A stretch of DNA of 64,000 nucleotides from a virus, in the IMG/VR virus record IMGVR_UViG_3300008954_000015, positions 62,001 to 126,000 of that record; one strand, given 5' to 3'. Made by a program: the position numbers and the translations under genes. The notes beneath the pieces are model-generated. The model saw only the letters and a list, made by a program, of their open reading frames with translations, was not told the origin of the DNA and did not search any database. This document shows positions 7,858 through 63,547 of the stretch, piece after piece; positions within the stretch are counted from its first letter, which is position 1; every line of letters begins with the position of its first letter.

Positions 7858-8258
7858 GTTGGCTGATAGTTAAAAAGGTACTAAAAGAGTCTTGGATTTG
7901 GCTAAAAGAACATTGGCAACTGCCGTTCTTGTTTGTATGGACGATCGTGGTATATGTTTTAACCAGAAGAAACACAGACTCTTTAATAGAGGTGGTGGAA
8001 GCCAAAAAAGAGTCTTACAGGAGGCAAGTTGAAGCTTTACGAAAAAGTCACAATGATGAACTGTTAAGAAGAGATTCCCTGGAAGACAAGTATGAAAAGG
8101 TTTTAGAAGAAGTCGAAAGAAAATTCGAATCAGAAGAAAAAAGAATATCAGAAGAAAACAAAAATAAGATAAAAGAAGTAATAGTTAAATCAAAAGGAAA
8201 TTCAGATGAAATTAGAAAAAGAATTGAAGAGGAATTTGGGTTCAGGTTTGTGGAATAA
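7854..8258 (+). CDS. Membrane-anchored coiled-coil protein, i-spanin-like
   Basis: This 134-residue protein starts at ATG 7854, overlapping the stop of the holin-like gene (ATGA). An N-terminal membrane segment (about residues 23-41, LPFLFVWTIVVYVLTRR) is followed by a long charged coiled coil (about 45-120). That is the layout of inner-membrane spanins (Rz), which act across the periplasm in the last step of lysis. The last 53 bases encode the start of the next gene in another frame, recalling Rz/Rz1 overlaps. No sequence family was recognised, so the call rests on topology and context. Confidence 0.45.
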   Translation: MSWLIVKKVLKESWIWLKEHWQLPFLFVWTIVVYVLTRRNTDSLIEVVEAKKESYRRQVEALRKSHNDELLRRDSLEDKYEKVLEEVERKFESEEKRISEENKNKIKEVIVKSKGNSDEIRKRIEEEFGFRFVE

Positions 8259-8721
8259 GATTTTTGCGTTTGGTCTTATCGCGACGCTTTCTCTTCCTGT
8301 CTACGCGCAACCCAACACTAATGATATTCCTCTGCCGCCCGTTTCGTTTTCTCGAGTTACTGATGGGGAAATATTAAATAGTATCGGCCTTGACCCAATT
8401 GGTGGAGCATGGTGCTATGACGATGAGGCAAATGCCATTCTTATTACCGCCCCAGCAAGAGAGAGGTCCAAATGCGAACTCAAACTTATGTACGAACTAG
8501 AGAAGCAAAAAGTTAAATATCAGTTTGAGATTGATAAATTAAAACTAAGAGTCGACACGCTAACCAACCAACACAGGGAAATCAACCTTATAAAAGATAG
8601 AGAGATCGACCGCTTAACCGAAGCGGCAATAAAAAGGCCAAATGATTATACTGCTTGGTGGGCAACAGGGGGTTTCGTGACAGGAGTTTTGACAACCCTG
8701 GCAGTAGTTTTATCTCTATGA
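8206..8721 (+). CDS. Exported protein with signal peptide and C-terminal membrane segment
   Basis: This 171-residue protein starts at ATG 8206, inside the preceding gene. A Sec-type signal is visible (hydrophobic FAFGLIATLSLPVYAQ, likely cut after AQ near residue 35). A periplasmic region has two cysteines and a coiled coil (about 100-145), and the C-terminus is hydrophobic (GFVTGVLTTLAVVLSL). There is no lipobox cysteine, so it is not a classical o-spanin. With the two genes before it, it forms a plausible lysis cassette. A tail- or host-envelope-directed role is the alternative. Confidence 0.45.
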   Translation: MKLEKELKRNLGSGLWNKIFAFGLIATLSLPVYAQPNTNDIPLPPVSFSRVTDGEILNSIGLDPIGGAWCYDDEANAILITAPARERSKCELKLMYELEKQKVKYQFEIDKLKLRVDTLTNQHREINLIKDREIDRLTEAAIKRPNDYTAWWATGGFVTGVLTTLAVVLSL

Positions 8722-48138: not shown

Positions 48139-49536
48139 ATGGAAGCAGAAACTAACTTTTCAAGATTTGGAAAGTCTTTCCAAGAAGACTTGTGCCACCT
48201 TATTCTTAATGATCGCCCCTTCGCAGATCAGATGTTCGAAGTTTTAGATCTTAATTTTCTAGAATTAAAGCATCTTAGGGTATTTATAGGCAAAATAAAG
48301 CAATATAGAGCGAAATACGAAGTACACCCTACTTCAAAAATCATGGCAACAATAATTAGATCAGGTCTTGAAGATCAGCCAGATTCTGTAAAGATTAGAA
48401 TTAGAGAGTATTATGCAAAAGTACTATCCTCGGGAATTCTGCCAGATTCGGCAGATTACACCAAGGATATCGCTTTAGATTTTTGCAGGAAACAAAAACT
48501 AAAAGAGGCTCTCATGAGGTCGGTCGATTTAATAAAATCGTCTTCCTTTGATGAGGTGTCAAAAGTGATAGACAACGCCTTAAAGCTTGGATCGGACAAT
48601 GACCTGGGATATGATTATTTAACAGACTTCGAAGCCCGATTTGCGTTGAAGTCTAGAGACCCAATAACAACGGGTTGGCAGCATATAGATGAGGTAGCGA
48701 AGGGCGGCCTTGGCAAGGGCGAGCTAGGGGTGGTTGTGGCACCTACTGGTGCAGGCAAATCGATGGTCCTGGTCCATCTAGGCGCCCATGCTTTAAAAGC
48801 CGGGAAGAACGTTCTACACTACACTCTTGAGCTGGCAGACACCGTTGTGGCCAGCAGATATGATTCAGCTATAACTGGGGTTAATCTCAATAATCTGACG
48901 GTCTTTAAAGAGAAGATATATGAAGAAATAAAAGATATAGAAGGACAGTTAATAGTCAAAGAATATCCAACGAGATCAGCGTCAATTCAGACTATTAAGA
49001 ATCATTTAGATAAGTTACGTCGAAGAGGCTTTAATCCAGATTTGATAATTGTGGATTATGGCGATTTGATAAAACCAGAATTTTCAAAAAAAGACGAAAA
49101 AAGGCACCAACTCGAGACTATTTACGAAGAGTTGAGGGGCCTAGCACAGCAGCACGAGTGTCCAATTTGGACCGCTTCACAAACAAACCGCTCAGGATTA
49201 AATGCAGAGGTGATCACCATGGAGTCCATTTCGGAAGCTTTCAACAAATGTTTTGTTGCGGATTTTATCTTTACTGTTTCAAGGACCATAGAAGACAAAA
49301 ATACAAATACGGGAAGATTCTTTATAGCCAAAAATCGTAACGGCCCCGATGGGCTAATCTATCCTATTTTTATGGACACTGCAAATGTGAGCATAAAGGT
49401 CCTAAACCAAACGAACGAGAGTATTAATGAGATTATAGATAAGTCTTCAAAGGAGAGACTAGAGAATTTAAAGCAAAAATACGCAGAATTTAAAAGCAAA
49501 AACAAGGAGGGTGAGTTTAGTGGAGTTATCAAATAA
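48139..49536 (+). CDS. DnaB-type replicative helicase (T4 gp41-like)
   Basis: This 465-residue helicase has an N-terminal helical domain (about 1-150) and a RecA-like C-terminal domain with Walker A VVAPTGAGKSM (about 199-209), HYTLELAD (about 233-240), Walker B LIIVDYGDLI (about 302-311) and WTASQTNRSG (about 342-351). The length matches DnaB and T4 gp41. It unwinds the fork ahead of the polymerase and partners with the primase at 3327. The gene is preceded by an unusual direct-repeat array and overlaps the RNR gene. Confidence 0.88.
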   Translation: MEAETNFSRFGKSFQEDLCHLILNDRPFADQMFEVLDLNFLELKHLRVFIGKIKQYRAKYEVHPTSKIMATIIRSGLEDQPDSVKIRIREYYAKVLSSGILPDSADYTKDIALDFCRKQKLKEALMRSVDLIKSSSFDEVSKVIDNALKLGSDNDLGYDYLTDFEARFALKSRDPITTGWQHIDEVAKGGLGKGELGVVVAPTGAGKSMVLVHLGAHALKAGKNVLHYTLELADTVVASRYDSAITGVNLNNLTVFKEKIYEEIKDIEGQLIVKEYPTRSASIQTIKNHLDKLRRRGFNPDLIIVDYGDLIKPEFSKKDEKRHQLETIYEELRGLAQQHECPIWTASQTNRSGLNAEVITMESISEAFNKCFVADFIFTVSRTIEDKNTNTGRFFIAKNRNGPDGLIYPIFMDTANVSIKVLNQTNESINEIIDKSSKERLENLKQKYAEFKSKNKEGEFSGVIK

Positions 49537-51382
49537 AATTTTGTCAGATATTACGGTGCACATGAAATACGCAAGGTACATCCCTGAAAAGAAGAGAAGA
49601 GAAACGTGGGAAGAATTAGTAATTCGAAACATGAATATGCACTTAAGAAAGTTTCCAGAATTAGAACTACAGATTCACAAGGCATACAAGCTTGTGCACG
49701 AAAAGAAGGTGCTCCCCTCTATGAGGTCTATGCAGTTTGGTGGCAAGCCCATCGAAGTTGCTCCAAATCGAATTTTTAATTGTGCCTTTATGCCAATTAA
49801 TGATTGGAGATCTTTTAGTGAGGCCATGTTTTTGTTGTTGGGCGGTACTGGCGTGGGATACAGTGTTCAACGCCATCACGTGGAGTGTCTCCCGGAGATA
49901 AGAAAACCAAACCCTAAACGTTCTCGTCGATTTTTGATCAATGATTCCATTGAGGGGTGGGCCGACGCTGTGAAAGCCCTCGTGAGGTCTTATTTTTTTG
50001 GAGGTTCTCGTATACGCTTCGACTACTCAGATATCCGACCAAAGGGTGCGAATTTAGTTACTTCTGGCGGTAAAGCCCCCGGGCCACAGCCGCTGCGAGA
50101 GTGCTTGGTAAAACTCGAGGGTATGTTTTCTGAAAAAGAAGAAGGCGACAAGCTTGAGCCAATCGAGGTCCATGACATGGTTTGTCACATTGCGGACGCG
50201 GTCTTGGCAGGAGGCATCCGCCGCGCCGCCTTAATTTCATTGTTTTCTGCAGATGATCGAGAGATGATTGCTGCAAAGGCCGGGTCCTGGTGGGAACAGA
50301 ATCCTCAGAGAGGGCGCGCCAATAATTCTGTGGTGTTGTTGAGACACAAAATTGATAAAGATTATTTTATGAATTTGTGGCATCGCGTACGCGCATCAGG
50401 CGCCGGCGAACCCGGGTTTTATTTTTCCAACGATAAGGATTGGGGCACCAACCCTTGTTGCGAAATCGGTCTCCGACCGAACCAATTTTGCAATCTGACA
50501 GAGGTCAACGTTTCCAATGTTGAAGATCAGGAAGACCTAGAGGACCGAGTTAGAGCCGCCGCATTTATAGGAACCCTGCAAGCAAGTTATACGGATTTCC
50601 ATTATCTTAGAGATGTTTGGAGGAAAAACACGGAAAAGGACGCACTGATAGGCGTGTCCATGACCGGTATCGCATCCGGCAAGATATTAGATCTTGATAT
50701 GAAAGCTGCAGCCCTGGAGGTCAAGAAAGAAAACCGCCGCGTAGCTATGCAGATTGGAATCAAGTTCGCCGCGCGCACTACCTGCGTCAAGCCCGCAGGC
50801 ACCACCAGTTTAGTTTTGGGCACTTCTTCTGGAATCCATGCTTGGCATGCAGAGTTTTACTTAAGAAGATTAAGGGTTGGAAAGTCGGAATCTATTTATA
50901 CATTTTTGCAAGAAAATCACCCGGAACTTTTGGAGGATGAATATTTCAGCCCTCACACAACTGCTGTAATTTCTGTTCCACAATCAGCACCAGGAAGTGC
51001 AATTTTAAGATCAGAGTCAGCGTTGCAACTCTTAAAGAGGGTGAAATCAGTGACAGATGGGTGGGTTAAGCCAGGCTTTCAAAAGGGCCAAAACACACAC
51101 AATGTTTCTGCAACAATATCAATCAAAGATGCGGAATGGGCAGATGTTGGAGAGTGGATGTGGGAAAACAGGAATAGTTACAACGGGTTATCGGTTTTGC
51201 CATATGACGGAGGGACATATGTCCAGGCACCTTTCGAAGAATGCTCAAAAGAAACATATGAAGCTATGTTATCTTCTTTAAGAGATTTGGATCTTTCTAA
51301 AATAGTTGAAATTGAAGATGAGACCAACCTCACTAGTGAGTTGGCCTGCGCAGGCGGCGCATGCGAAATTAATTTTATATAA
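49520..51382 (+). CDS. nrdJ: Adenosylcobalamin-dependent class II ribonucleotide reductase, monomeric type
   Basis: This 620-residue enzyme makes dNTPs from rNTPs using B12 and no oxygen. The start is GTG 49520, 9 bases after AAGGAGG (GTG 49511 touches the SD). Features are MRSMQFGG and APNRIFNCAF near the start, TNPCCEIGL with the active-site Cys and Glu (about 310-318), and CVKPAGTTSLVLGTSSG (about 407-423). The C-terminal redox pair is in ACAGGACEI. Monomeric class II RNRs are usually about 700-740 residues, so this is a compact form. It overlaps the helicase gene by 17 bases. Confidence 0.87.
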   Translation: MELSNKILSDITVHMKYARYIPEKKRRETWEELVIRNMNMHLRKFPELELQIHKAYKLVHEKKVLPSMRSMQFGGKPIEVAPNRIFNCAFMPINDWRSFSEAMFLLLGGTGVGYSVQRHHVECLPEIRKPNPKRSRRFLINDSIEGWADAVKALVRSYFFGGSRIRFDYSDIRPKGANLVTSGGKAPGPQPLRECLVKLEGMFSEKEEGDKLEPIEVHDMVCHIADAVLAGGIRRAALISLFSADDREMIAAKAGSWWEQNPQRGRANNSVVLLRHKIDKDYFMNLWHRVRASGAGEPGFYFSNDKDWGTNPCCEIGLRPNQFCNLTEVNVSNVEDQEDLEDRVRAAAFIGTLQASYTDFHYLRDVWRKNTEKDALIGVSMTGIASGKILDLDMKAAALEVKKENRRVAMQIGIKFAARTTCVKPAGTTSLVLGTSSGIHAWHAEFYLRRLRVGKSESIYTFLQENHPELLEDEYFSPHTTAVISVPQSAPGSAILRSESALQLLKRVKSVTDGWVKPGFQKGQNTHNVSATISIKDAEWADVGEWMWENRNSYNGLSVLPYDGGTYVQAPFEECSKETYEAMLSSLRDLDLSKIVEIEDETNLTSELACAGGACEINFI

Positions 51383-51385
51383 GTG

Positions 51386-51414
51386 TTGATTTAAATGTAA
51401 AAAATTGGTATAAT
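51386..51414 (+). promoter_or_regulatory. Sigma70-like promoter for GroES-like gene
   Basis: TTGATT (51386-51391), a 17-bp spacer and a perfect TATAAT (51409-51414). The leader of about 38 bases ends in AAAAGGAG before ATG 51458. Confidence 0.7.
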
Positions 51415-51457: not shown

Positions 51458-51787
51458 ATGTCTAGAATTCTTGAGAGAATGAGGCCGGTTAACCGCCACC
51501 TTTTAATTATTCCGCACACAAAAAAGAAAGAACAAACACGTGGGGGGGTTCTGCTTCCGGATGGGTTTGATGACACTCCCGGGCGTTACTCTGTGGTAAC
51601 TGTTGTGGATGCCGCCTCAGATTGTTCAAAAGATTTTAAAAGATTTTCGCTAGAAAGGTACACTGAGACTATAGATAGAAAGGCCGTGGTGGAAACTTCA
51701 ATGATAGAGGAGATTGAAGTTAATGATAAAAAGCATCACTTAATACTAGAAAATTATGTAGTGGGGATCATAGAGTCGCCATCATGA
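51458..51787 (+). CDS. GroES-like co-chaperonin (T4 gp31-like function)
   Basis: This 109-residue protein follows the GroES pattern: RPVNRHLLIIPHTKKKEQTRGGVLLPDG resembles the GroES start and mobile loop (GGI-LP; shown in part, residues 9-36), then strands YSVVTVVDAA and a C-terminal HLILENYVVGII like the GroES end. The lid hairpin region is not obvious. T4 gp31 (111 residues) replaces GroES when folding its capsid protein. A similar task for the long capsid protein here is inference. It has its own promoter and overlaps the next gene by 4 bases. Confidence 0.72.
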   Translation: MSRILERMRPVNRHLLIIPHTKKKEQTRGGVLLPDGFDDTPGRYSVVTVVDAASDCSKDFKRFSLERYTETIDRKAVVETSMIEEIEVNDKKHHLILENYVVGIIESPS

Positions 51788-53817
51788 TGTGGAAGTCTAC
51801 GTTTGTTATTTTACTTGTTTGCTTGTTTTCTTGTCAAGAAAATGTGAGATCTGAATACTCCTCAGATTCAGCTTTAGACTCTGCAGTTCGCATTGCTGTT
51901 CCTGACGCCCGCCCTGATCGCCCACCTGTTCCTGATATTAGAATTATTTATCCTCGGTATGATTTAGGTCCGGATGCCATTGTCGACGCAGCCCCTCCGC
52001 CCCCTGTGTGTGAAAGACTGGGTCTCAGAGAGCCGTGTGAAATAGAGGGTCTGCATGGGCCTTGTGCTACCGGAACAAAGGTCTGCAATATAACTCACTG
52101 GTCGGCCTGTACCCCGATAAGTTTTCCAAGAATAGAGATTTGTGACGGCTTGGACAATGACTGCGACGGCCGCCTGAACGAGGCACCCAACAGTTTGCAT
52201 GAAGAACAAGAAGACCCTCAAAATCTTTTGTTATCTCGCGCTTGCTACACTGGTTCCCCCGGTACACAAAAAAACGGCCCATGCCACCCGGGTGTATCCG
52301 TTTGCAGAGAGCGCACGCGTAATACTGATGCTGGTGTGGAAAACTATTATGATTATGGAGAGTGTGAACAACAGACTGTGCCCTCAGAAGAGGAATGCGA
52401 TACCATTGACAATGACTGCGATGGCAACACGGACGAGGGCGTGTTAAATATCTGTAATCAGTGCGGACCGGACCCTATTGAAGTGTGTGACGGCTTAGAT
52501 AACGATTGTGACGACGACACTGACGAGGGGGTTCTGAATGATTGCGGCGAGTGCGGCGAATTACCCCGAGAGTTGTGCGACTTTGTTGATAATGACTGCG
52601 ATGGAAGTATAGACGAAGACTTTGCAGACGAAGTCTGTGCATGCGACCACCCCGATTATGTACCTCAGCCAGAAACTTGCAACGGTGCTGATGATGATTG
52701 CGACGGTTTTGTTGATGAAGGTCCCGCTGGCGGACCTTTGTCAATGCTTTGTTCGACGGATTTGATTACGAACGAGGTCATAACGTACGAAAGAAGAGAA
52801 GATGGTCCCGAATATGTTGCAGGAGATTGTCGCTTAGGGGCGGCTTTCTGTGAATCAGTTCGCAACGCACAAGGAGAATTAGAACATGGATACTTTGATT
52901 GTCAGCAGGAGATCCGCCCAGGAATCGAAAGGTGCAATGATGCAGACGATGATTGCGATGGCTTGGCAGATGAGGACTTTGAACAAGGATCGGTTGCTGT
53001 TATGATGGTGGTCGACGTTTCAGGTTCCATGGATGAGGGAGAATTAACCGCTGCGTTTACAGCGACAAGAGATTCAGTTCGCCGATTGTTTAATGATGGC
53101 ATAGTAGATGTTTGTTATATGTTGGCTATAGTGGGGAATGATGATATGCCAGACCCTTATTTATTTTACCCTGCAGACACGTGTGTTCCTGGGGTTGAAG
53201 ATCCACCGGTTGTCCCAATTGAAGACATGGCAAACGCGGTCAATACTTTGCGCCTCAACTTGCGAGCTGGCAATATTAATCAAGGTGGTGGCACAGAAAA
53301 TACTTTAGATGCTATGGGGCGCTTTTTTACAGATGACAGGATAGACTGGGACCGGGATGGAGCTAACGATAACATTCTTTGGAGTACAAGCCGCCCCGCT
53401 GCACGTATTCAAGGAGTTGAAGATGCTTGGGATGTAGATCTTAGTCAATATACCCACAGGATTGTAATTGTGATAGGTGACGAGCCGGCCCAAGGTGCAG
53501 AATGGAACAACCATGCAGTTGCTACGGCCATGGCGCACGCAAACGGCATGGCTTTCATTATTGGGAACAGGCAAAACGCTCACAGTTATCAGCCATTAAT
53601 AGATTTTGGAGCAGTTCACAGCCCTGGCTTGCAGGGATTCGGAAATCAAAATCAACAACAGATTATTGACACTGTGGTAGAGGCCATTGAAGAGGCAGCA
53701 TGTATCAATAACAGGGAAGAAGAGGAAGAAGAAGGGGCAGCTCTTACGAAAAGCACCAGATACTATTACGCTTCTGCATTAACGAGAATGAATTACAGGC
53801 TAAGGATGTGTTTGTAG
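51784..53817 (+). CDS. Lipoprotein with six MopE-type metal-binding repeats and a VWA domain
   Basis: This 677-residue protein has a lipoprotein signal (FVILLVCLFSC, likely lipidated Cys 17). A disordered Pro/Asp region precedes six copies of the motif E-x-C-[DN]-x-x-D-[ND]-D-C-D-x-x-x-[DN]-E at about 118, 204, 233, 263, 297 and 382. That is the calcium/metal-binding repeat of MopE-like extracellular proteins in myxobacteria and relatives. A VWA domain follows with MIDAS DVSGSMDEG (D411, S413, S415), ending in an acidic segment and a short hydrophobic/basic tail. It should be exported and surface-exposed. I know of no such architecture as a normal phage gene; transfer from a host is likely. 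Confidence 0.85.
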   Translation: MMWKSTFVILLVCLFSCQENVRSEYSSDSALDSAVRIAVPDARPDRPPVPDIRIIYPRYDLGPDAIVDAAPPPPVCERLGLREPCEIEGLHGPCATGTKVCNITHWSACTPISFPRIEICDGLDNDCDGRLNEAPNSLHEEQEDPQNLLLSRACYTGSPGTQKNGPCHPGVSVCRERTRNTDAGVENYYDYGECEQQTVPSEEECDTIDNDCDGNTDEGVLNICNQCGPDPIEVCDGLDNDCDDDTDEGVLNDCGECGELPRELCDFVDNDCDGSIDEDFADEVCACDHPDYVPQPETCNGADDDCDGFVDEGPAGGPLSMLCSTDLITNEVITYERREDGPEYVAGDCRLGAAFCESVRNAQGELEHGYFDCQQEIRPGIERCNDADDDCDGLADEDFEQGSVAVMMVVDVSGSMDEGELTAAFTATRDSVRRLFNDGIVDVCYMLAIVGNDDMPDPYLFYPADTCVPGVEDPPVVPIEDMANAVNTLRLNLRAGNINQGGGTENTLDAMGRFFTDDRIDWDRDGANDNILWSTSRPAARIQGVEDAWDVDLSQYTHRIVIVIGDEPAQGAEWNNHAVATAMAHANGMAFIIGNRQNAHSYQPLIDFGAVHSPGLQGFGNQNQQQIIDTVVEAIEEAACINNREEEEEEGAALTKSTRYYYASALTRMNYRLRMCL

Positions 53818-54554
53818 ACGGGTTGGTAATAGGAGGAAGCTTGCAGGCTTATTTGTATGCGATTTCCAAGGGCCTGTACATAATAGACAACACAAACAGT
53901 GCACCAAAGGCGCTTCCTCATGATCAGGTTTTTCAAAGTCGCCTACTGCCACAGCTGGAATTTTTCCAGTCAATGTTGGGCAAGTCGTTGCTCGCCGGGA
54001 GGCCTGACTCTTTAAAAGTTTACGCAGATCGTTGCAAAATAGTAAAAGGAAGAAGTACCAAAGAGGTAGCCTTTAGTCAGTGCTACATCTTCGACACGAC
54101 AGCAGTTAAGTGTTACGACAATGACCTTGCCCCTCAAAACGGAAAAGTCAAAGTTACCGATTATTTTAAATTTAAAAATATGAAAAAAAATATTAATTTT
54201 AATACGTTAAGTACCTTAGATTCTTTTGTTTCAGAAGTGCAGTTTGTAAAATCTTCTAGCTCTAGTGTGGATTCGCCACATATCGGAGGTTGTCTAGCAA
54301 TATCGCACCTTATGGAGAGTGATCTAGAAAAGTTTGACTTTTCAGATACCATGGTCAGATTTAAGTTGCTGGACCTGTTAAGAAAGAAGGGGTTCAAAGG
54401 AAAGAGGTCAGGCGTGTATAAGGATGGTTCAACTAAGTACGCCAGCATGAAGCTTTTTCATATAGATCGTTCAGTGGAACAGTACTCTTGTTTATATAAG
54501 GATAGTGATACTGTTAAGTTTCTTGGTTTATCGACTGAGAAAGCTTTAGATTGA
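53808..54554 (+). CDS. Possible Rossmann-type protein, unknown
   Basis: This 248-residue protein starts at GTG 53808, 10 bases inside the VWA gene. The N-terminus VDGLVIGGSLQAYLYAISKGLYIIDN has the strand-glycine-helix-strand layout of a dinucleotide-binding fold (V-I-G-G-S; shown in part, residues 3-26). The rest is mixed alpha/beta with no motif I can name. It overlaps the next gene by 4 bases, forming a tight cassette with the VWA lipoprotein and the nucleotidyltransferase-like protein. Function unknown. Confidence 0.45.
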   Translation: MFVDGLVIGGSLQAYLYAISKGLYIIDNTNSAPKALPHDQVFQSRLLPQLEFFQSMLGKSLLAGRPDSLKVYADRCKIVKGRSTKEVAFSQCYIFDTTAVKCYDNDLAPQNGKVKVTDYFKFKNMKKNINFNTLSTLDSFVSEVQFVKSSSSSVDSPHIGGCLAISHLMESDLEKFDFSDTMVRFKLLDLLRKKGFKGKRSGVYKDGSTKYASMKLFHIDRSVEQYSCLYKDSDTVKFLGLSTEKALD

Positions 54555-55411
54555 AAACTCCTAGAGAAAAGAAAAAGACAAACACCGTAGGTGTTATACC
54601 TGTTTCGGGCTGGTCGGATCGCTTAGGGTTTATCTGGCCTGATTGTTGCTCTCCTGTTGGTTTGTCTTATATGGCTATAGAGAGGAGCATCTTGGAGTGT
54701 GCGTATGCTGGATGTAGTTCGATATGGGTTGTTTGCAACGACGCGTCGGCCCCTTTGATAAAAGAGAAGATAGGTGATTATATTATCGCCCCTCATTGTT
54801 ATGAGTCAAGACCGTACGTTAAATACTTTAAAGAACACATAAAGCATGTTCCTGTTTTTTATGTTCCGGTTCACCCTAAGGATCGTGACCGTAGAGATAG
54901 TTTAGGTTGGTCTGTTCTACACGGGTGCTTGAGTGCCTTCCTGGTTTCATCTCAAATAAGCTCTTGGATTGCACCAAGAAAATATTATGTTAGTTTTCCT
55001 TATGGCTTGTATGACCCTCTTATAGTGAGGGACCACGTTAAAGAAATAAACTCTGAAAAGAACTTTTTCTTATCTTTTGGCGATCTCACGGTCCGGGATA
55101 ATTTATATCTTGGGTTTACGATTTCTCCAGATGAGTGGAAACAATTGCGTTATGATCTAAAAATTTCTTGCACTGGTGGAGATAAAAGCATCCCGTATTA
55201 TAAAAGATGGTCATCACGATATTTTACCCTTGACAAAATATTTAAAAATGATAATATAGTAGTAGACAAGAAAAGAGAAATTAAAAAATATCACGACTTA
55301 TCTAGCTGGGACTCGTTAGAAAAGTTTTATAAATCTTCCCTATCGCTCGAAAAGCCGGCCGATAGAATAATTGGTCCGTTTTATTATAAAGGAATATACG
55401 AAATTGAATAA
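54551..55411 (+). CDS. Sugar-phosphate nucleotidyltransferase-like protein
   Basis: This 286-residue protein starts at TTG 54551 and overlaps the previous stop. The N-terminal part (VGVIPVSGWSDRLGFIWPDC...SPVG) resembles the G-x-G-T-R-L nucleotide loop and Pro-containing loop of GT-A nucleotidyltransferases, but the loop is altered (SGWSDRLG). AIERSILECAYAGCSSIWVVCND (62-85, shown in part) is the typical helix-strand that follows. It may activate or move sugar groups, perhaps for surface or DNA modification. Activity is uncertain because the loop is unusual. Confidence 0.5.
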   Translation: MKTPREKKKTNTVGVIPVSGWSDRLGFIWPDCCSPVGLSYMAIERSILECAYAGCSSIWVVCNDASAPLIKEKIGDYIIAPHCYESRPYVKYFKEHIKHVPVFYVPVHPKDRDRRDSLGWSVLHGCLSAFLVSSQISSWIAPRKYYVSFPYGLYDPLIVRDHVKEINSEKNFFLSFGDLTVRDNLYLGFTISPDEWKQLRYDLKISCTGGDKSIPYYKRWSSRYFTLDKIFKNDNIVVDKKREIKKYHDLSSWDSLEKFYKSSLSLEKPADRIIGPFYYKGIYEIE

Positions 55412-58400
55412 CAGACAATCGCCTAGCATACCTTTCGTTGGTCTGCACGCCCACTCAGTAGCGGGCTCTCCGTTTGATGCTCTTGGTTATCCACAAGAAC
55501 ATATGGAATATGCTTATGAGAACGGTATGGATGCCCTAGCGCTCACCGACCACGGCAACGCTAATGGGTTGGCATACCAAGTCTTGCATGCCAAAGAGAT
55601 GAAGAAGCAAGGGAAAGATTTTAAGCCAATTTTTGGAGTGGAGGCTTATTTTATACCATCTGTCTCTAATTGGAAAAAAGATTATGAGAGAATTAAATCA
55701 GAAGCCAAGAGAAAATCAGAATATGAGGTAGACTCATCCGGGACTACGGTTGAAGACGAAGAATCAAAGAAAAAGATGAAGTCCACCCTCAACAAGAGAA
55801 GGCATTTAATCCTGCTGGCCCAGAATCAAACAGGCTTGCAAAATATATTTAAAATGATCTCACATTCATACATCGGAGACAGTTTTTATCGCTACCCTCG
55901 CGTAGATTATGCACTGCTAAAGAAGCATAACGAAGGCGTAATAGCTGCTTCGGCTTGTTTGGGGGGTGTCTATGCAGGTGATTATTGGGAGAACAGAGAT
56001 TTTGGAGCCGATGCAGTCCTCACTGCAATGAGGTCGACCACCCAAAAAATGGTAGATATTTTCGGTCCAAGATGGTATGGGGAATTACAGTGGAACAATA
56101 TTCCAGAACAACATGAACTTAATCAGTATATTATTCAGATGCACTATGAACACGGTATAGATCTCATATCTACAGCCGACAGCCATTACTATTCACCCAA
56201 TGCCTGGAAAGACAGAGAACTCTATAAAAGACTCGGCTGGCTCGGCCGCGGCCGCCCAGACTACTTATCAGAAGAGTTGCCCACTTCTGTGGAAGAGATC
56301 GGCTACGAACTATACCCCAAAAATGGAGATCAGATGTGGGAATCATATCTTGAGTATTCTAAGTTGGCAGGTATCAAATATGATGACGACTTGGTGATGA
56401 ATTCTATCACCAAGACACACAAGATTGCACACTCGATGATAGAGGACTTTATCCCAGACAATACAGTGCGATTACCAGACTTTGTAGTCCCGGAGGGCTC
56501 CACCCCTGCTCAGGCTCTTGCTGCATTGTGTGTTGAGGGCTCTCGCACTCTGGGTTTTTCTGGTAATCAATTTTATACTGATCGATTAAAGACAGAACTT
56601 GAGGTTATAGAGTCTAGAGGTTTTTCAAAATACTTTTTAACTATGAAGGCCATTTCCTCCCGAGCAGAACAAAGCCAACTAGTTGGTCCTGGCCGCGGCT
56701 CAGCCGCAGGTTCGCTGGTTTCATACGCCCTGGGAATAACCCAGGTGGACCCGATAAAATACGGCCTTCAGTTTGAAAGGTTTCTAACAAAGGGAGGCTC
56801 AGGATATCCTGATATAGATTATGATGTTTCAGACCCAATGTCGTTAAAGGAAAGTTTGATAGAAGAGTGGGGGGACGACACTGTGGTTCCGATCACCAAT
56901 TGGAACACACTTCAGTTGAGGTCCTTGATCAAAGATATATCTAAATTTTATGGTATCGAGTTCACCGAGGTCAACAATGTGACGAGCAAAATGGTTTATG
57001 AGGCTACGCCGCTGGCTAAAAAGGAGCATGGCATAACTGCGGGAGTCTATGTTCCGACGTTTGAAGAATTGATGAAATATTCTTCCACCTTGCAGGAATT
57101 CTTAAACAAGTACCCACAAGTCAAGACGCACGTTAGCGCGCTTTATGGTCAAACCCGATCCGCATCCCGTCATGCTGGCGGCGTAGTGGTCGGCGAAAAT
57201 CTCAATACGTGGATGCCGCTCATAAATAGCGGCGGCGTCCGCCAAACTCCGTGGTCGGAAGGGCAACATGTAAGGCACCTCGAACCTATGGGTTTTATTA
57301 AGTTTGATATCTTAGGTCTTGCGTCGCTTAGAATGATGGAGGGTGCTATAGAAAGGATCCTGCAGCGACACCAAAACATAGAGAGTCCCACCTTCGATGA
57401 TATAAAGGGTTTTTATGATTCGAATCTTCATCCGGATAGCATAGATTTATCAGACGAAGGCGTGTGGAGGAACATCTTTCACAAAGGAAAATGGGCAGGA
57501 ATATTTCAGTTTACTGAATCTGGAGCGCAGTCTTTCTGCAAAAACGCAAAACCAAACAACATAACAGATTTAGCAGCAATAACAAGTATTTACCGCCCGG
57601 GCCCATTGTCTGCGGGGGTTGATAGGATGTATGTGGGGGCGAAGCACGCACCAGAAGAGGTGGAATACATTAATGATACTTTTAAAAAAGTCACAGAGGA
57701 AACTTATGGTTTTTTGATTTTTCAGGAGCAAATTGCCATGTTGGCGCACAAGCTTGGAAAAAACCTTTCTCTTGACGAGGGAAATAAACTTAGGAAGCTT
57801 TTAACAAAGAAGGGGGCCGGCGAAGTTCAAGAACAGAAAGATAAAATTTGGCTTAAGTTTCGAGAAGGTTGTGTAGAAAAGGGTATGCCAAAGTGGCAAG
57901 CTAAGGAAATATGGGACAAGTTTGAATATTTTTCAGGATATGGTTTTAACAAATCACATGCAGTATCATATTGTATTTTATCTTTTCAGTGTGCTTGGCT
58001 GCTGAATTATTACCCTGTTGAGTGGCTTGCTGCATATTTGGATAAAGAGCCAGAAAAGAAAAAAGAGCGTGCTATTGCAACTGCAAAATCGTATGGGTTT
58101 AATATAGAGCCGCTAAATATAAACACTTCGGGGTCACAGTGGGACATCGCAGAAGACGACAAAACACTTATACAGCCCCTTTCATCTATTAAGGGATTGG
58201 GGTCTGCAGCAATTGAACAAATTATAAACAATAGACCCTTCAACACTATTGAAGAGTTTTTGTTTCATGATGACATTAAATATTCGAAGCTAAATAAGAA
58301 AGCTTTGGACGCTTTGGTCAGAAGCCAGACACTAAATATACTCATGGATGAGCGGTTCACTGGTCTTAAGCATTTTTGGTCTGCAATCGCCGTCGATCGA

Positions 58401-58835
58401 CCTAGAAAGCAGAAAAATTTAGAAGAAAACGTAACAACGTATGCTCCAGAGGGAGACTTTACCGAGGAAGAAAAGTTAGAATATCAAGTATCTTTAACTG
58501 GTGTTTTTCCAATTAATGCGGTTGTCACGGATGCTGTCCGTAGAAAATTAGACGAGCTATATATTCCCCCCATTTCTGAGTATGATCCAGATTTGGGCGT
58601 AACTTGGTTTATACCTAGAGAGTGCATTCTGAAGAAGTCTAAGAATAATAAAAACTTTTATGTAGTAAAAGTAATAGATGATAACAACGAGACAAATGTG
58701 ATAAGATGCTGGGGTGTCGACCCAGAAAAGGACCTTATTCATATTAATAGGCCGTACATGGCTCGTCTTAAATATGATCCTAATTGGGGCTTCTCTACGT
58801 TTAGTGTGAGAAAGATGTTTAAACTGTTGGCATAG
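55404..58835 (+). CDS. dnaE: DNA polymerase III alpha subunit-like replicative polymerase
   Basis: This 1143-residue family C polymerase has a PHP domain first (LHAHSVAGSPFD, ALTDHGN; about 13-55). The catalytic core follows with GPGRGSAAGSLVSYALGI (about 432-449) and PDIDYD (Asp pair, about 471-476). AITSIYRPGPLSAG and the FLIFQEQIA finger motif come next, then GYGFNKSHAVSYCIL (about 850) and a C-terminal OB-like region. The size matches E. coli DnaE (1160). The start is set at TTG 55404, 10 bases after AAAGGA; TTG 55371 is an alternative. A family C enzyme beside a PolA-type one is unusual in T4-like phages. Confidence 0.88.
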   Translation: MNNRQSPSIPFVGLHAHSVAGSPFDALGYPQEHMEYAYENGMDALALTDHGNANGLAYQVLHAKEMKKQGKDFKPIFGVEAYFIPSVSNWKKDYERIKSEAKRKSEYEVDSSGTTVEDEESKKKMKSTLNKRRHLILLAQNQTGLQNIFKMISHSYIGDSFYRYPRVDYALLKKHNEGVIAASACLGGVYAGDYWENRDFGADAVLTAMRSTTQKMVDIFGPRWYGELQWNNIPEQHELNQYIIQMHYEHGIDLISTADSHYYSPNAWKDRELYKRLGWLGRGRPDYLSEELPTSVEEIGYELYPKNGDQMWESYLEYSKLAGIKYDDDLVMNSITKTHKIAHSMIEDFIPDNTVRLPDFVVPEGSTPAQALAALCVEGSRTLGFSGNQFYTDRLKTELEVIESRGFSKYFLTMKAISSRAEQSQLVGPGRGSAAGSLVSYALGITQVDPIKYGLQFERFLTKGGSGYPDIDYDVSDPMSLKESLIEEWGDDTVVPITNWNTLQLRSLIKDISKFYGIEFTEVNNVTSKMVYEATPLAKKEHGITAGVYVPTFEELMKYSSTLQEFLNKYPQVKTHVSALYGQTRSASRHAGGVVVGENLNTWMPLINSGGVRQTPWSEGQHVRHLEPMGFIKFDILGLASLRMMEGAIERILQRHQNIESPTFDDIKGFYDSNLHPDSIDLSDEGVWRNIFHKGKWAGIFQFTESGAQSFCKNAKPNNITDLAAITSIYRPGPLSAGVDRMYVGAKHAPEEVEYINDTFKKVTEETYGFLIFQEQIAMLAHKLGKNLSLDEGNKLRKLLTKKGAGEVQEQKDKIWLKFREGCVEKGMPKWQAKEIWDKFEYFSGYGFNKSHAVSYCILSFQCAWLLNYYPVEWLAAYLDKEPEKKKERAIATAKSYGFNIEPLNINTSGSQWDIAEDDKTLIQPLSSIKGLGSAAIEQIINNRPFNTIEEFLFHDDIKYSKLNKKALDALVRSQTLNILMDERFTGLKHFWSAIAVDRPRKQKNLEENVTTYAPEGDFTEEEKLEYQVSLTGVFPINAVVTDAVRRKLDELYIPPISEYDPDLGVTWFIPRECILKKSKNNKNFYVVKVIDDNNETNVIRCWGVDPEKDLIHINRPYMARLKYDPNWGFSTFSVRKMFKLLA

Positions 58836-58847
58836 GGAGAAAAAAAG

Positions 58848-59510
58848 ATGGCAAAATTAACAGGTCTCTGCGCAAGGGTGATAGCAGAACAATACAAGAG
58901 GGTATTTCAAAACAAGGGGTATGCTTTTTTTGAAAATGGAGATTTTAACTTAAACATTGTGGGCGTCCGAAACGATTCGGGCGACGCTTCAAAATTTGAC
59001 GATGCGATAGTTTTGCTGTATAAAGAAGCTGGCTCTTGGGTTTGTGATATATACACCGTTACAACTGAGCCCGGCACAACTATACTAAAGAGACCGCTAA
59101 AATCGGTTCGACACAAAGGGACTGCAATTTTAGTTCCAGATCAATATCGAGCAGCGTACAAAATCGGCACCCACAAGGGTTCAAGTACCAGAGGCTACAC
59201 AGCTTTGATACAACGGGGCAAACGCGTTAGGGTTTGGAGAGATAATAATCGGGACGCCAAACCTGATTATCACGGCCCGGAGGAGTCGGGGTGGTTCGGC
59301 ATCAACATTCACAAACACAGAGGCTCGGATGCCAAAGTTAATACGGGTGGCGTGTCAGCAGGCTGCCAGGTGTTTCAAAGCAGCAAGGATTTTCATGAAT
59401 TTATGGAAACCTGTGAGGAATCTGCAACCCGGTGGGGCAACTCATTTACTTACACCTTGTTGGAGCAGAAAGATATAACAAATTTAGGATTGGAGTATGA
59501 TATTGTCTAA
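58848..59510 (+). CDS. L,D-transpeptidase/YkuD-like wall enzyme, candidate endolysin
   Basis: This 220-residue protein starts at ATG 58848 behind GGGAG. The C-terminal half has FGINIHKHRG (150-159; H155) and VSAGCQVF (169-176; S170, C173). That is the H...S-x-G-C layout of YkuD-type L,D-transpeptidases, whose Cys attacks peptidoglycan peptides. There is no signal peptide. It could be a lysis enzyme, as no other endolysin is evident in the window, or a wall-modifying protein. The gene is located between DnaE and dUTPase and overlaps the latter. Confidence 0.55.
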   Translation: MAKLTGLCARVIAEQYKRVFQNKGYAFFENGDFNLNIVGVRNDSGDASKFDDAIVLLYKEAGSWVCDIYTVTTEPGTTILKRPLKSVRHKGTAILVPDQYRAAYKIGTHKGSSTRGYTALIQRGKRVRVWRDNNRDAKPDYHGPEESGWFGINIHKHRGSDAKVNTGGVSAGCQVFQSSKDFHEFMETCEESATRWGNSFTYTLLEQKDITNLGLEYDIV

Positions 59511-59964: not shown

Positions 59965-60182
59965 TGGGCTTAAAACGAAAACTAGAGAGAAAGCAGATGA
60001 CTAGCTTTTTTAAACAGTTTAAAAAAAGAATGAAACAATTCAAGAGTATGGTGCGGTGCACAGTCTGCGAACGCCCACCGGCACCCGGCGAGAATATTGA
60101 TTCTTGGCGTATAAAACAGCAGAGTGAAAATATTGATCTGGTTTGTGTTGATTGTCACGAATCAGAAAAGGAGAAAACATGA
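59964..60182 (+). CDS. Small zinc-ribbon-like protein
   Basis: This 72-residue basic protein starts at ATG 59964, overlapping the dUTPase stop by one base. It has CTVCERPPAPGENIDSW (about 32-48) and VCVDC (about 60-64), two Cys pairs likely to bind one zinc. The family and function are unknown. It overlaps the IMPDH start. Confidence 0.5.
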   Translation: MGLKRKLERKQMTSFFKQFKKRMKQFKSMVRCTVCERPPAPGENIDSWRIKQQSENIDLVCVDCHESEKEKT

Positions 60183-61213
60183 TAGAAGGGATGCTGCAAA
60201 AGTGCCTATCGTTTGATGATGTCTTGCTGGTTCCAAAAAAGAGTGACATTGAAAGTAGAGATCAAATTTCTATAGGCTCATTTTTGGGAGGTTTTTCTTA
60301 CTCGATACCTATTATTTCAAGCCCAATGGATACTGTTACAGAAGGGGTTATGGCTTCTGCCATGGCTAACGCAGGAGCCCTAGGGGTTGTCCACAGATAC
60401 AACACTATTGCTGAACAGTGTCAGATTATTCAATCAGCCCGGAATGGCTGCAAGTCTGAAAAAGCAACACTTGCCGCCGCAATCGGTGCCAGTGGGGATT
60501 TTCTCTCCAGGGCCACCAGCTTGGTTAACGTAGGAACAAATATTTTATGCATCGATGTCGCCCATGGGCATCACGCCATGGTCGAACGGGCCCTTAAAAG
60601 CTTGAAAGATTCTTTCGGCGAAGATATTACACTCATAGCAGGCAACGTGGCCACGGCAGAGGGGTTCTCTGATCTAGAAGATTGGGGCGCTGATGCAGTT
60701 CGTGTAGGGATAGGGGGAGGTTCAATATGCAGTACCCGACTACAGACTGGCCATGGCGTTTCTACTTTTCAATCAGTTGTGGCATGCCGTTTTGTCCGAA
60801 AACATGCAAAAATCATTGCAGATGGTGGTATCAAGAAGGCGGGAGACATTGTTAAATCGATTGCTGCCGGCGCCGATTTTGTTATGCTGGGGTCTTTATT
60901 GGCGGGAACAGACCAGGCCCCCGGCCAGTGTATTCAGACTGCTGATGGCGAACGTCACAAGGTCTATAGAGGCATGGCATCACGAGAAGCCCAGCTAGAT
61001 TGGAGAGGTGAAGTGCGGTCATTCGAGGGGATTTCCTCCTCGGTTCCATATAGGGGAGACGTGGCTGACATCTTATCCAGCCTGAGTAAAAACATAAGGA
61101 GCGGATTTTCCTATTCAGGCGCGATCAGCCAAGAAGAACTAAGAGAAAGAGCAACATTCATTCAGCAGACATCTGCCTCTCAGGTAGAAAGTCACACGCA
61201 TGTGTTGTTATGA
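60179..61213 (+). CDS. IMP dehydrogenase / GMP reductase family enzyme, no CBS domains
   Basis: This 344-residue TIM-barrel enzyme starts at ATG 60179, 7 bases after AAAGGAG. The N-terminus ([15 protein letters not shown], then [13 protein letters not shown]) and [11 protein letters not shown] (about 179-189, with the catalytic Cys) are diagnostic. [13 protein letters not shown] and a KVYRGMAS flap follow, with SGFSYSGA and ESHTHVL near the end, closer to IMPDH than to GMP reductase. Bacterial IMPDH has about 490 residues including two CBS domains, which are missing here. It would direct purines to GMP. Confidence 0.82.
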
Positions 61214-62657: not shown

Positions 62658-62927
62658 TTGAAAGGTATAGAAAGCGTGTACTGGGTAGATCAAAGGCCGC
62701 CAAACCAGGCCGATATTTACGTGGTGCAAATTAGCTTACCGGATGCACACAGCAGAGCAAGTTTGTTAAGAAGGGAGTTGGAAGAAGAGGGATGGCAAGT
62801 CCAAGCAACAGGTCACGACACAAAGAACAAAAAAGTAATATTAGTCTTGAGAAGGCAATTCAACACTCCACAAGAATGGGAATCATATCAGGAAAAGAGG
62901 ATGGAATGGACAAAGCTTCTGAAATAG
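62658..62927 (+). CDS. Small protein of unknown function upstream of clpP
   Basis: This 89-residue protein starts at TTG 62658 with GGGG 9 bases upstream. It reads as a compact alpha/beta fold (DIYVVQISLPD, a helix ASLLRRELEEEG, a strand VILVLRR). No family is recognised. Its last 22 bases overlap the ClpP-like gene, so the two are probably co-translated. Confidence 0.45.
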   Translation: MKGIESVYWVDQRPPNQADIYVVQISLPDAHSRASLLRRELEEEGWQVQATGHDTKNKKVILVLRRQFNTPQEWESYQEKRMEWTKLLK

Positions 62928-63547
62928 AAGAAAATCAAATCGTAATTATAAACAACATACAATCTCCACAAGAGAAAGAGGACCCCATCAGAACTCTCAC
63001 CATGTATGGGGACGTTACAGAGCAGAAAGCGGCAGACGTAGTGGCGGCACTCTTGTACATGCAGGGGACATCAGAGCGTTCGTATCTTAAAAACCCAGAA
63101 AACCCGGACTCTAAAGTAGTGACAGAATTTCAGCCGATAAAGCTTTATATATCGACTCACGGAGGTTCAGCTTCAGAGATGTTTTCTGTTTACGATGTAA
63201 TGAGGATGATACAAAAGGAAACGTGCGAAATCTCGACCTATGGGATCGGAAAAGTGATGTCCGCCGGCGTCCCAATTTTGTCGTGCGGGACAAAGGGCAA
63301 AAGATTTATCGGCAAGAATTGTCGAGTCATGCTTCACAATGTGATGGGTGGTTACCAAGGGAATATTTTTAGTCTCGAAAACGAACTAGACGAGATAAAA
63401 TGGATTCAAGAAAGATATATCGAATGCTTGGTGAAAAACACCAATTTAACTAAAAGAAATCTAAAGAAGATTTTAAAATCCCAAACAGATGTTTACATTT
63501 CAGCTAATCAAGCAATTAAATATGGAATTGCTGATAAAATTATCTAA
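62906..63547 (+). CDS. ClpP-like serine protease
   Basis: This 213-residue protein uses ATG 62906, 5 bases after AAGAGG; an earlier ATG at 62792 would add a non-ClpP leader overlapping the upstream gene. The catalytic Ser is in GKVMSAGVPI (S119) and His in VMLHNVMGGYQG (H144). The likely Asp is D195 in QTDVYISANQA. ISTHGGSASEM gives the oxyanion glycines. Length fits ClpP (about 207). A 15-residue insert (GTSERSYLKNPENPD) precedes the core. Phage ClpP-like proteases are often tied to prohead processing. Here a separate gp21-like protease exists, so it may act on host or other phage proteins. Confidence 0.82.
   Translation: MDKASEIEENQIVIINNIQSPQEKEDPIRTLTMYGDVTEQKAADVVAALLYMQGTSERSYLKNPENPDSKVVTEFQPIKLYISTHGGSASEMFSVYDVMRMIQKETCEISTYGIGKVMSAGVPILSCGTKGKRFIGKNCRVMLHNVMGGYQGNIFSLENELDEIKWIQERYIECLVKNTNLTKRNLKKILKSQTDVYISANQAIKYGIADKII

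What the first reader, a model, noticed from the sequence alone, without database searches (positions are those of the whole stretch)
51784..53817. Phage-encoded lipoprotein with MopE metal-binding repeats and a VWA domain
The sequence shows a lipobox, six Cys/Asp-rich repeats (E-x-C-x3-D-x-D-C-D) and a VWA MIDAS motif. This layout is known from surface proteins of myxobacteria-like bacteria, not from phage replication neighbourhoods. It is intact, overlaps its neighbours by 4 and 10 bases and shares their strand, so it is part of a phage operon. A receptor-mimic, exclusion or adhesion role would be new.
Basis: partly seen in the sequence, partly recalled or inferred. Interest (0 to 1): 0.85.

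Follow-up and report, generated by a model that had tools for sequence, protein, structure and literature searches.

The report
Phage-encoded surface lipoprotein with integrin-like head
A group of uncultivated T4-like phages carries, at a fixed place among their DNA-copying genes, a large membrane-anchored protein built from a cysteine-rich metal-binding stalk and an integrin-like binding head; it is a core phage gene and not an assembly error, and it most likely changes the surface of the infected bacterium, though that role is untested.

Summary
ORF 51784-53817 (677 aa) has a lipobox, six MopE-type motifs and a VWA domain with an intact MIDAS. It overlaps its neighbours by 4 and 10 bases. 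The record is a 127-kb virus contig. A chimera is excluded: an independent contig carries the same gene and neighbours, and a scan seeded on the ribonucleotide reductase (RNR) gene found a MopE-VWA lipoprotein in the same slot in 13 of 13 distinct complete close relatives. Contigs found through the lipoprotein itself add more (about 48 distinct proteins). None is in 50,697 GenBank phages.

The family is modular. Two VWA types (A in the window, B elsewhere) occupy the same slot. Stalk and head are under strong purifying selection, while linker and tail vary. The core holds an even number of cysteines in nearly all members, and the tail usually adds one more, typically penultimate, which predicts a covalent partner or multimer. 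A secreted SLT transglycosylase often sits next to type B.

Best reading: a core-operon, outer-membrane lipoprotein that binds an envelope or phage ligand through its VWA head and remodels or blocks the infected cell surface (superinfection exclusion, Llp-like in logic only). Architecture is well supported; function is inferred (about 0.4). Host unknown.

The parts
51386..51414 (+). candidate promoter TTGATT-17-TATAAT with TG before the -10, in the 75-bp gap between RNR and GroES
   Evidence: consensus scan; many such sites are expected by chance in the region, so weak
51458..51787 (+). GroES/Cpn10-like co-chaperonin, upstream operon neighbour
   Evidence: Cpn10 8.6e-4 (sub-threshold), phrog_3188 co-chaperonin GroES 4.9e-5
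51784..53817 (+). MopE-VWA lipoprotein (type A), 677 aa
51784..51834 (+). signal peptide and lipobox LFSC, lipidated Cys17
   Evidence: sequence; lipobox recurs in the family, Asp/Glu at +3 in 44 of 44 matched members, no Asp at +2 (the pattern used demanded D/E/N at +3)
51835..52008 (+). variable Asp/Pro/Ala-rich linker (residues 18-75)
   Evidence: 26-35% identity between close relatives versus 72-75% in the stalk
52009..52983 (+). Cys-rich stalk, residues 76-400, with six MopE-type metal-binding motifs at 52141, 52396, 52486, 52576, 52678, 52933
   Evidence: regex and shuffles, PF11617
52984..53715 (+). VWA domain with MIDAS (D411, S413, S415, T504, D566), type A
   Evidence: alignment, AF2, Foldseek
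53716..53814 (+). acidic linker and Tyr-rich tail ending MCL, one odd Cys (C676)
53808..54554 (+). downstream neighbour, 248 aa, N-terminal Rossmann-like VIGGS motif, no family match; fast-evolving
   Evidence: about 21-33% identity to orthologues; no Pfam, PHROG or NCBIfam hit
54551..55411 (+). conserved 286-aa neighbour, nucleotidyltransferase-like by eye, no family match
   Evidence: conserved synteny
49511..51382 (+). class II-like ribonucleotide reductase, upstream anchor of the slot
   Evidence: phrog_367 6.9e-128, PF02867 8.8e-10
55371..58835 (+). DnaE-like DNA polymerase III alpha, downstream anchor
   Evidence: tblastn to phage DnaE-like genes

Best explanation
The gene encodes an exported lipoprotein of the infected cell, not a virion structural part. 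Shown: lipobox, Cys-rich stalk with six metal-binding-type loops, VWA head with intact MIDAS, acidic linker, short Tyr-rich tail with an odd cysteine; a fixed place in the nucleotide/replication operon; clade-wide retention; purifying selection on stalk and head. Inferred: it is made with the replication genes, exported, lipidated and sorted to the outer membrane (no Asp at +2). The disulfide-bonded, metal-stabilised stalk holds the VWA head away from the membrane. The head binds a conserved envelope or phage ligand through its MIDAS metal. The unpaired tail cysteine links it covalently to itself or a partner. The most likely outcome is a remodelled or blocked cell surface that stops further phage adsorption or entry (superinfection exclusion), with a co-encoded exported transglycosylase assisting in many type B relatives.
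For: Gene anatomy. MIDAS residues D411, S413, S415 and D566 invariant in 13 members, T504 T or S; VWA fold by Foldseek. Fixed slot RNR-GroES-[ThyX]-[SLT]-X-g53808-g54551-DnaE in 13 of 13 distinct complete slots from an RNR-seeded scan with RNR at least 79% identical. Stalk and VWA dN about 0.1-0.2 with saturated dS, linker and tail about 30-50% identical. VWA types A and B, and an apparent A-stalk/B-head chimera (L109), occupy the same slot. Core cysteine count even in nearly all scored members, with 1 tail Cys in most. Of 1557 viral ORFs the 30 ending in [ILMVQA]C[LFYWIMR] are all this family. Exported SLT (PF01464 4e-17) is adjacent to type B in about 12 distinct loci, including two where the pair sits elsewhere in the genome. 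Precedent: T5 Llp, a phage outer-membrane lipoprotein that blocks FhuA (PMC9586334).
Against: No expression, localisation or binding data. Exclusion lipoproteins such as Llp and Cor are small and lack VWA. Exclusion genes are usually accessory and variable, whereas this one is kept throughout its clade with a conserved head. The terminal Cys codon coincides with the next gene's NTG start in many members (10-base overlap), so part of its conservation may be forced by the overlap, although several members without that overlap keep it. Host unidentified.
Confidence: 0.4

Rival explanations
1. Envelope-breakdown or lysis-timing factor: with the exported SLT transglycosylase it weakens or senses the envelope, the lipoprotein acting at the outer membrane.
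For: SLT directly upstream of type B in about 12 distinct loci, and the two genes travel together (L190, L207); in the sister clade the SLT occupies the slot without the lipoprotein (L132, L133, L136); an endolysin-like gene (phrog_33083) lies nearby at 58848-59510.
Against: Type A phages, including the window, have no SLT at the slot; the operon holds replication and nucleotide genes; a 650-aa stalked VWA protein resembles no known spanin.
Confidence: 0.2
2. Cell-surface adhesin or decoy of the infected cell: the head binds neighbouring cells, matrix or predators, aiding spread or protection, possibly copied from host surface proteins.
For: MopE-type repeats are common in Myxococcota-like bacteria and MopE itself is surface-associated (PMC3423442); VWA/integrin-like fold.
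Against: Head under purifying rather than diversifying selection; no close bacterial VWA relative found; no known benefit to a lytic phage.
Confidence: 0.15
3. Virion-associated or assembly protein (VWA co-chaperone or tail component) encoded next to a GroES-like gene.
For: vWA co-chaperones with MoxR are proposed or reported to act in virion assembly in other viruses (PMC7824862); GroES-like neighbour.
Against: Lipobox and 34 or more cysteines in the mature core point outside the cytoplasm; no MoxR gene recognised next to it.
Confidence: 0.1
4. Metal acquisition or binding protein (copper or calcium), as the MopE name suggests.
For: PF11617 motif hits.
Against: The MopE copper site uses two histidines and a kynurenine made from Trp130 (PMC3423442); the loops here are Asp-rich as in calcium sites (own knowledge); the conserved VWA head is unexplained.
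Confidence: 0.08
5. Assembly chimera with a bacterial fragment.
For: None found.
Against: An independent contig (L006) carries the same gene and following genes at 100% identity, and divergent contigs keep the synteny.
Confidence: 0.01

Closest known systems
T5 Llp / T1-phi80 Cor superinfection-exclusion lipoproteins
   Same: Phage-encoded lipoprotein; Llp is made early in infection and acts at the outer membrane (PMC9586334)
   Different: Llp is a small protein that binds the FhuA plug from the periplasm; no stalk, MopE repeats or VWA; no sequence relation found here
MopE of Methylococcus capsulatus and bacterial PF11617 proteins
   Same: PF11617 motif repeats in a secreted or surface protein
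   Different: MopE's function rests on a His/His/kynurenine copper site (PMC3423442); the phage proteins add a VWA head and a lipobox
Phage vWA co-chaperones (MoxR-vWA of jumbo phages, ATV ORF892) and TerF vWA
   Same: VWA domain in a virus; structural similarity in BFVD
   Different: Described as co-chaperone or sub-membrane proteins (PMC7824862); no lipobox or MopE stalk mentioned
Integrin beta-I / VWF A domains
   Same: VWA fold with MIDAS
   Different: No sequence homology detected; ligand unknown
IgM secretory tailpiece (analogy only)
   Same: Short tail with penultimate Cys before the last residue; in IgM it makes inter-monomer disulfides (PMC7709107)
   Different: Unrelated protein; polymerisation of the phage protein untested

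Membership tests
PF11617 (MopE putative metal-binding motif) repeat proteins | Match to PF11617 above its gathering score | tested here: met
   74.7 bits versus cut-off 27, five stretches
PF11617 (MopE putative metal-binding motif) repeat proteins | MopE copper site (two His plus Trp-derived kynurenine) | not tested
   Not searched for; the matched repeats are Cys/Asp-rich and do not contain it
VWA domain | MIDAS DxSxS...T/S...D | tested here: met
   D411, S413, S415, D566 invariant in 13 members, T504 T or S
VWA domain | VWA/Rossmann fold | tested here: met
   Foldseek probability 1.0 to integrin and VWF A domains, on a moderate model (pLDDT 64, pTM 0.72)
VWA domain | Pfam VWA model above threshold | tested here: not met
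   No Pfam VWA hit for type A; type B sub-threshold 5.3e-4
Bacterial lipoprotein | Signal peptide with lipobox Cys | tested here: met
   LFSC at Cys17; comparable lipobox across 44 members by pattern; no dedicated predictor run
Superinfection-exclusion lipoprotein (Llp/Cor) | Sequence match to known exclusion or defence families | tested here: not met
   No PHROG or PADLOC hit, no match in INPHARED
Superinfection-exclusion lipoprotein (Llp/Cor) | Blocks phage adsorption or entry when expressed | not testable with these tools
   Needs an experiment and an identified host

The most novel reading that the evidence does not exclude
A phage clade builds a covalently linked, integrin-like lipoprotein layer on infected cells: MIDAS heads on metal-stabilised stalks, joined through tail cysteines and installed with a phage transglycosylase. 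This would be a phage-made surface coat and a new kind of exclusion or adhesion device.
Probability: 0.15. Interest if true: 0.9.

Novelty: new variant of a known kind. Interest (0 to 1): 0.62.

Why it matters
Phage lipoproteins known to act on the host envelope are few and small. A large, modular, clade-wide one placed inside the replication operon suggests that surface remodelling during infection is a core step for these phages. It gives concrete tests: MIDAS mutants, tail-cysteine mutants, and ligand pulldown.

Tried and rejected
Chimera: rejected by synteny. Host identification: capsid protein searched in genomes of the Myxococcota-centred group, the phylum of a Flavobacteriales genome and the phylum of Desulfosarcina. 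The first two gave none; two genomes of the last carried distant relatives (about 38-42% identity) without the slot genes in the stretches read; inconclusive. No tRNA in the window; two in L016 only, of seven sources scanned. Shine-Dalgarno motifs precede 36 of 58 window genes against 16% background, which argues against a typical Bacteroidota host, by own knowledge. Bacterial source of the VWA: none by BLAST or profile in 189-237 genomes; these searches had no positive control. Terminal-Cys conservation as a pure protein signal: weakened by the overlap with the next start codon. SLT/lipoprotein Cys co-variation: looked for, no clear pattern. Bacteroidota lipoprotein export signal: the Asp at +3 resembles the B. 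fragilis form (PMC5080379), but the family lacks the acidic run; left open. Full-length AF2 model too poor to interpret beyond the VWA. Two tool calls failed on wrong coordinates, two on a wrong handle.

Full report
Observation. The ORF at 51784-53817 (+) encodes 677 residues and overlaps its neighbours by 4 and 10 bases. It has a lipobox (LFSC, Cys17), six Cys/Asp-rich motifs at residues 120-397 (none in 20,000 shuffles; PF11617 6.7e-21) and a VWA MIDAS (DVSGS 411-415, T504, D566). Pfam misses the VWA domain, but the AF2 model of the domain (pLDDT 64, pTM 0.72) matches integrin beta-I and VWF A domains with probability 1.0. The full-length model is too weak to use for the stalk.

Not a chimera. 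The window is part of a 126,975-base virus record with a T4-type capsid gene (Gp23, 8.9e-73). A sequence and a profile search of viral contigs gave 17 loci with type A, one of them an independent contig identical over the gene and the genes that follow it (L006). Divergent contigs keep the order RecA, exonuclease-like, helicase-like, RNR, GroES, lipoprotein, g53808, g54551, DnaE. No homologue is in 50,697 GenBank phages.

Slot occupancy. To avoid ascertainment by the lipoprotein itself I searched with the RNR. In that set, every distinct locus with RNR at least 79% identical and a complete slot has a MopE-VWA lipoprotein (13 of 13, my count). In the sister group with RNR about 73-77% identical the plus-strand slot lacks it in the loci listed, except L192, whose RNR is a fragment and which was found through the lipoprotein. 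L135, L142 and L177 carry a 424/419-aa MopE-VWA lipoprotein on the other strand in the same interval. Lipoprotein-positive phages with RNR 71-73% (L010, L018, L019, L020, L022) were found through the lipoprotein, so I draw no frequency from them.

Two head types. Type A (window) and type B (ILFIVDWSGSM) share the slot; L019 and L020 have A plus a reduced B; L109 joins a type-A-like N-terminal stalk to a type B head. In four cases the gene lies in another genomic context (L016, L188, L189/L190, L207), so it can move.

Selection. Between relatives at least 68% identical, stalk and VWA mostly have dN near 0.1-0.2 with saturated dS, whereas linker and tail fall to about 30-50% identity. In type A the VWA is the most conserved part (80-86% identity to the window for its closest relatives). 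This suits binding of a conserved partner better than an arms-race recognition tip.

Cysteines. After the lipid Cys the core (stalk plus VWA) holds 34, 38, 46 or 52 cysteines, an even number in nearly every scored member; one subgroup (L117, and L209/L210 by total count) has 53. The tail adds one in most members, usually penultimate. Of 1557 viral ORFs, the 30 ending in [ILMVQA]C[LFYWIMR] are all this family. Caveat: in many members the Cys codon supplies the TG of the next gene's start codon. Members without that overlap (L010, L017, L018, L019, L016 first copy) keep it, and L189/L207, which lack the terminal Cys, have another single tail Cys. I infer, without proof, an intermolecular disulfide; the IgM tailpiece (PMC7709107) is an analogy, not a relative.

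Partners. In many relatives ThyX (PF02511 1e-50) and a small exported SLT transglycosylase (PF01464 4e-17) lie between GroES and the lipoprotein. SLT is next to type B in about 12 distinct loci and never next to type A. SLT and lipoprotein stay together in two relocated cases (L190, L207). This ties type B to the envelope and keeps a lysis-related rival alive.

Mechanism. I favour an outer-membrane lipoprotein, made with the replication genes, whose MIDAS head engages an envelope ligand and changes or blocks the surface of the infected cell (superinfection exclusion; 0.4). T5 Llp (PMC9586334) shows that phage lipoproteins can do this, but no membership in the Llp/Cor family is claimed: no sequence match and very different size and domains. 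Rivals are lysis, adhesion, assembly and metal binding. Operon timing, localisation, ligand and host are all untested.

Novelty. Phage lipoproteins, VWA domains in viruses (PMC7824862) and MopE repeats in bacteria are each known. Their combination as a clade-wide phage gene was not found in the libraries or papers searched, a limited search of open-access papers.

Noticed in passing
L103:13634-14107, L190:5482-5994, L207:2685-3191: Small exported SLT transglycosylase encoded directly upstream of the lipoprotein, moving with it to other genomic contexts; in the slot without the lipoprotein in the sister clade (L132, L133, L136).
   Followed up: partly
L135:12394-13668 (-), L142:12406-13680 (-), L177:12416-13675 (-): Third MopE-VWA lipoprotein type on the opposite strand of the same interval, beside two small exported or membrane proteins.
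   Followed up: partly
L177:15823-16641: Phage-encoded M50 (RseP-like) membrane protease (PF02163 6.7e-54) near a lipoprotein-like ORF.
   Followed up: no
window 60152-61213: Phage IMP dehydrogenase/GMP reductase gene (PF00478 3.7e-99).
   Followed up: no
window 53808-54554: Rossmann-like VIGGS protein of unknown function, syntenic but only about 21-33% identical between phages that share about 80% identical RNR.
   Followed up: no
window 62792-63547: ClpP-family protease gene (PF00574 2.3e-33).
   Followed up: no
window 8206-8721: 171-aa ORF with signal peptide and C-terminal TM segment just before the terminase/portal genes; possible lysis or envelope gene, no family match.
   Followed up: no
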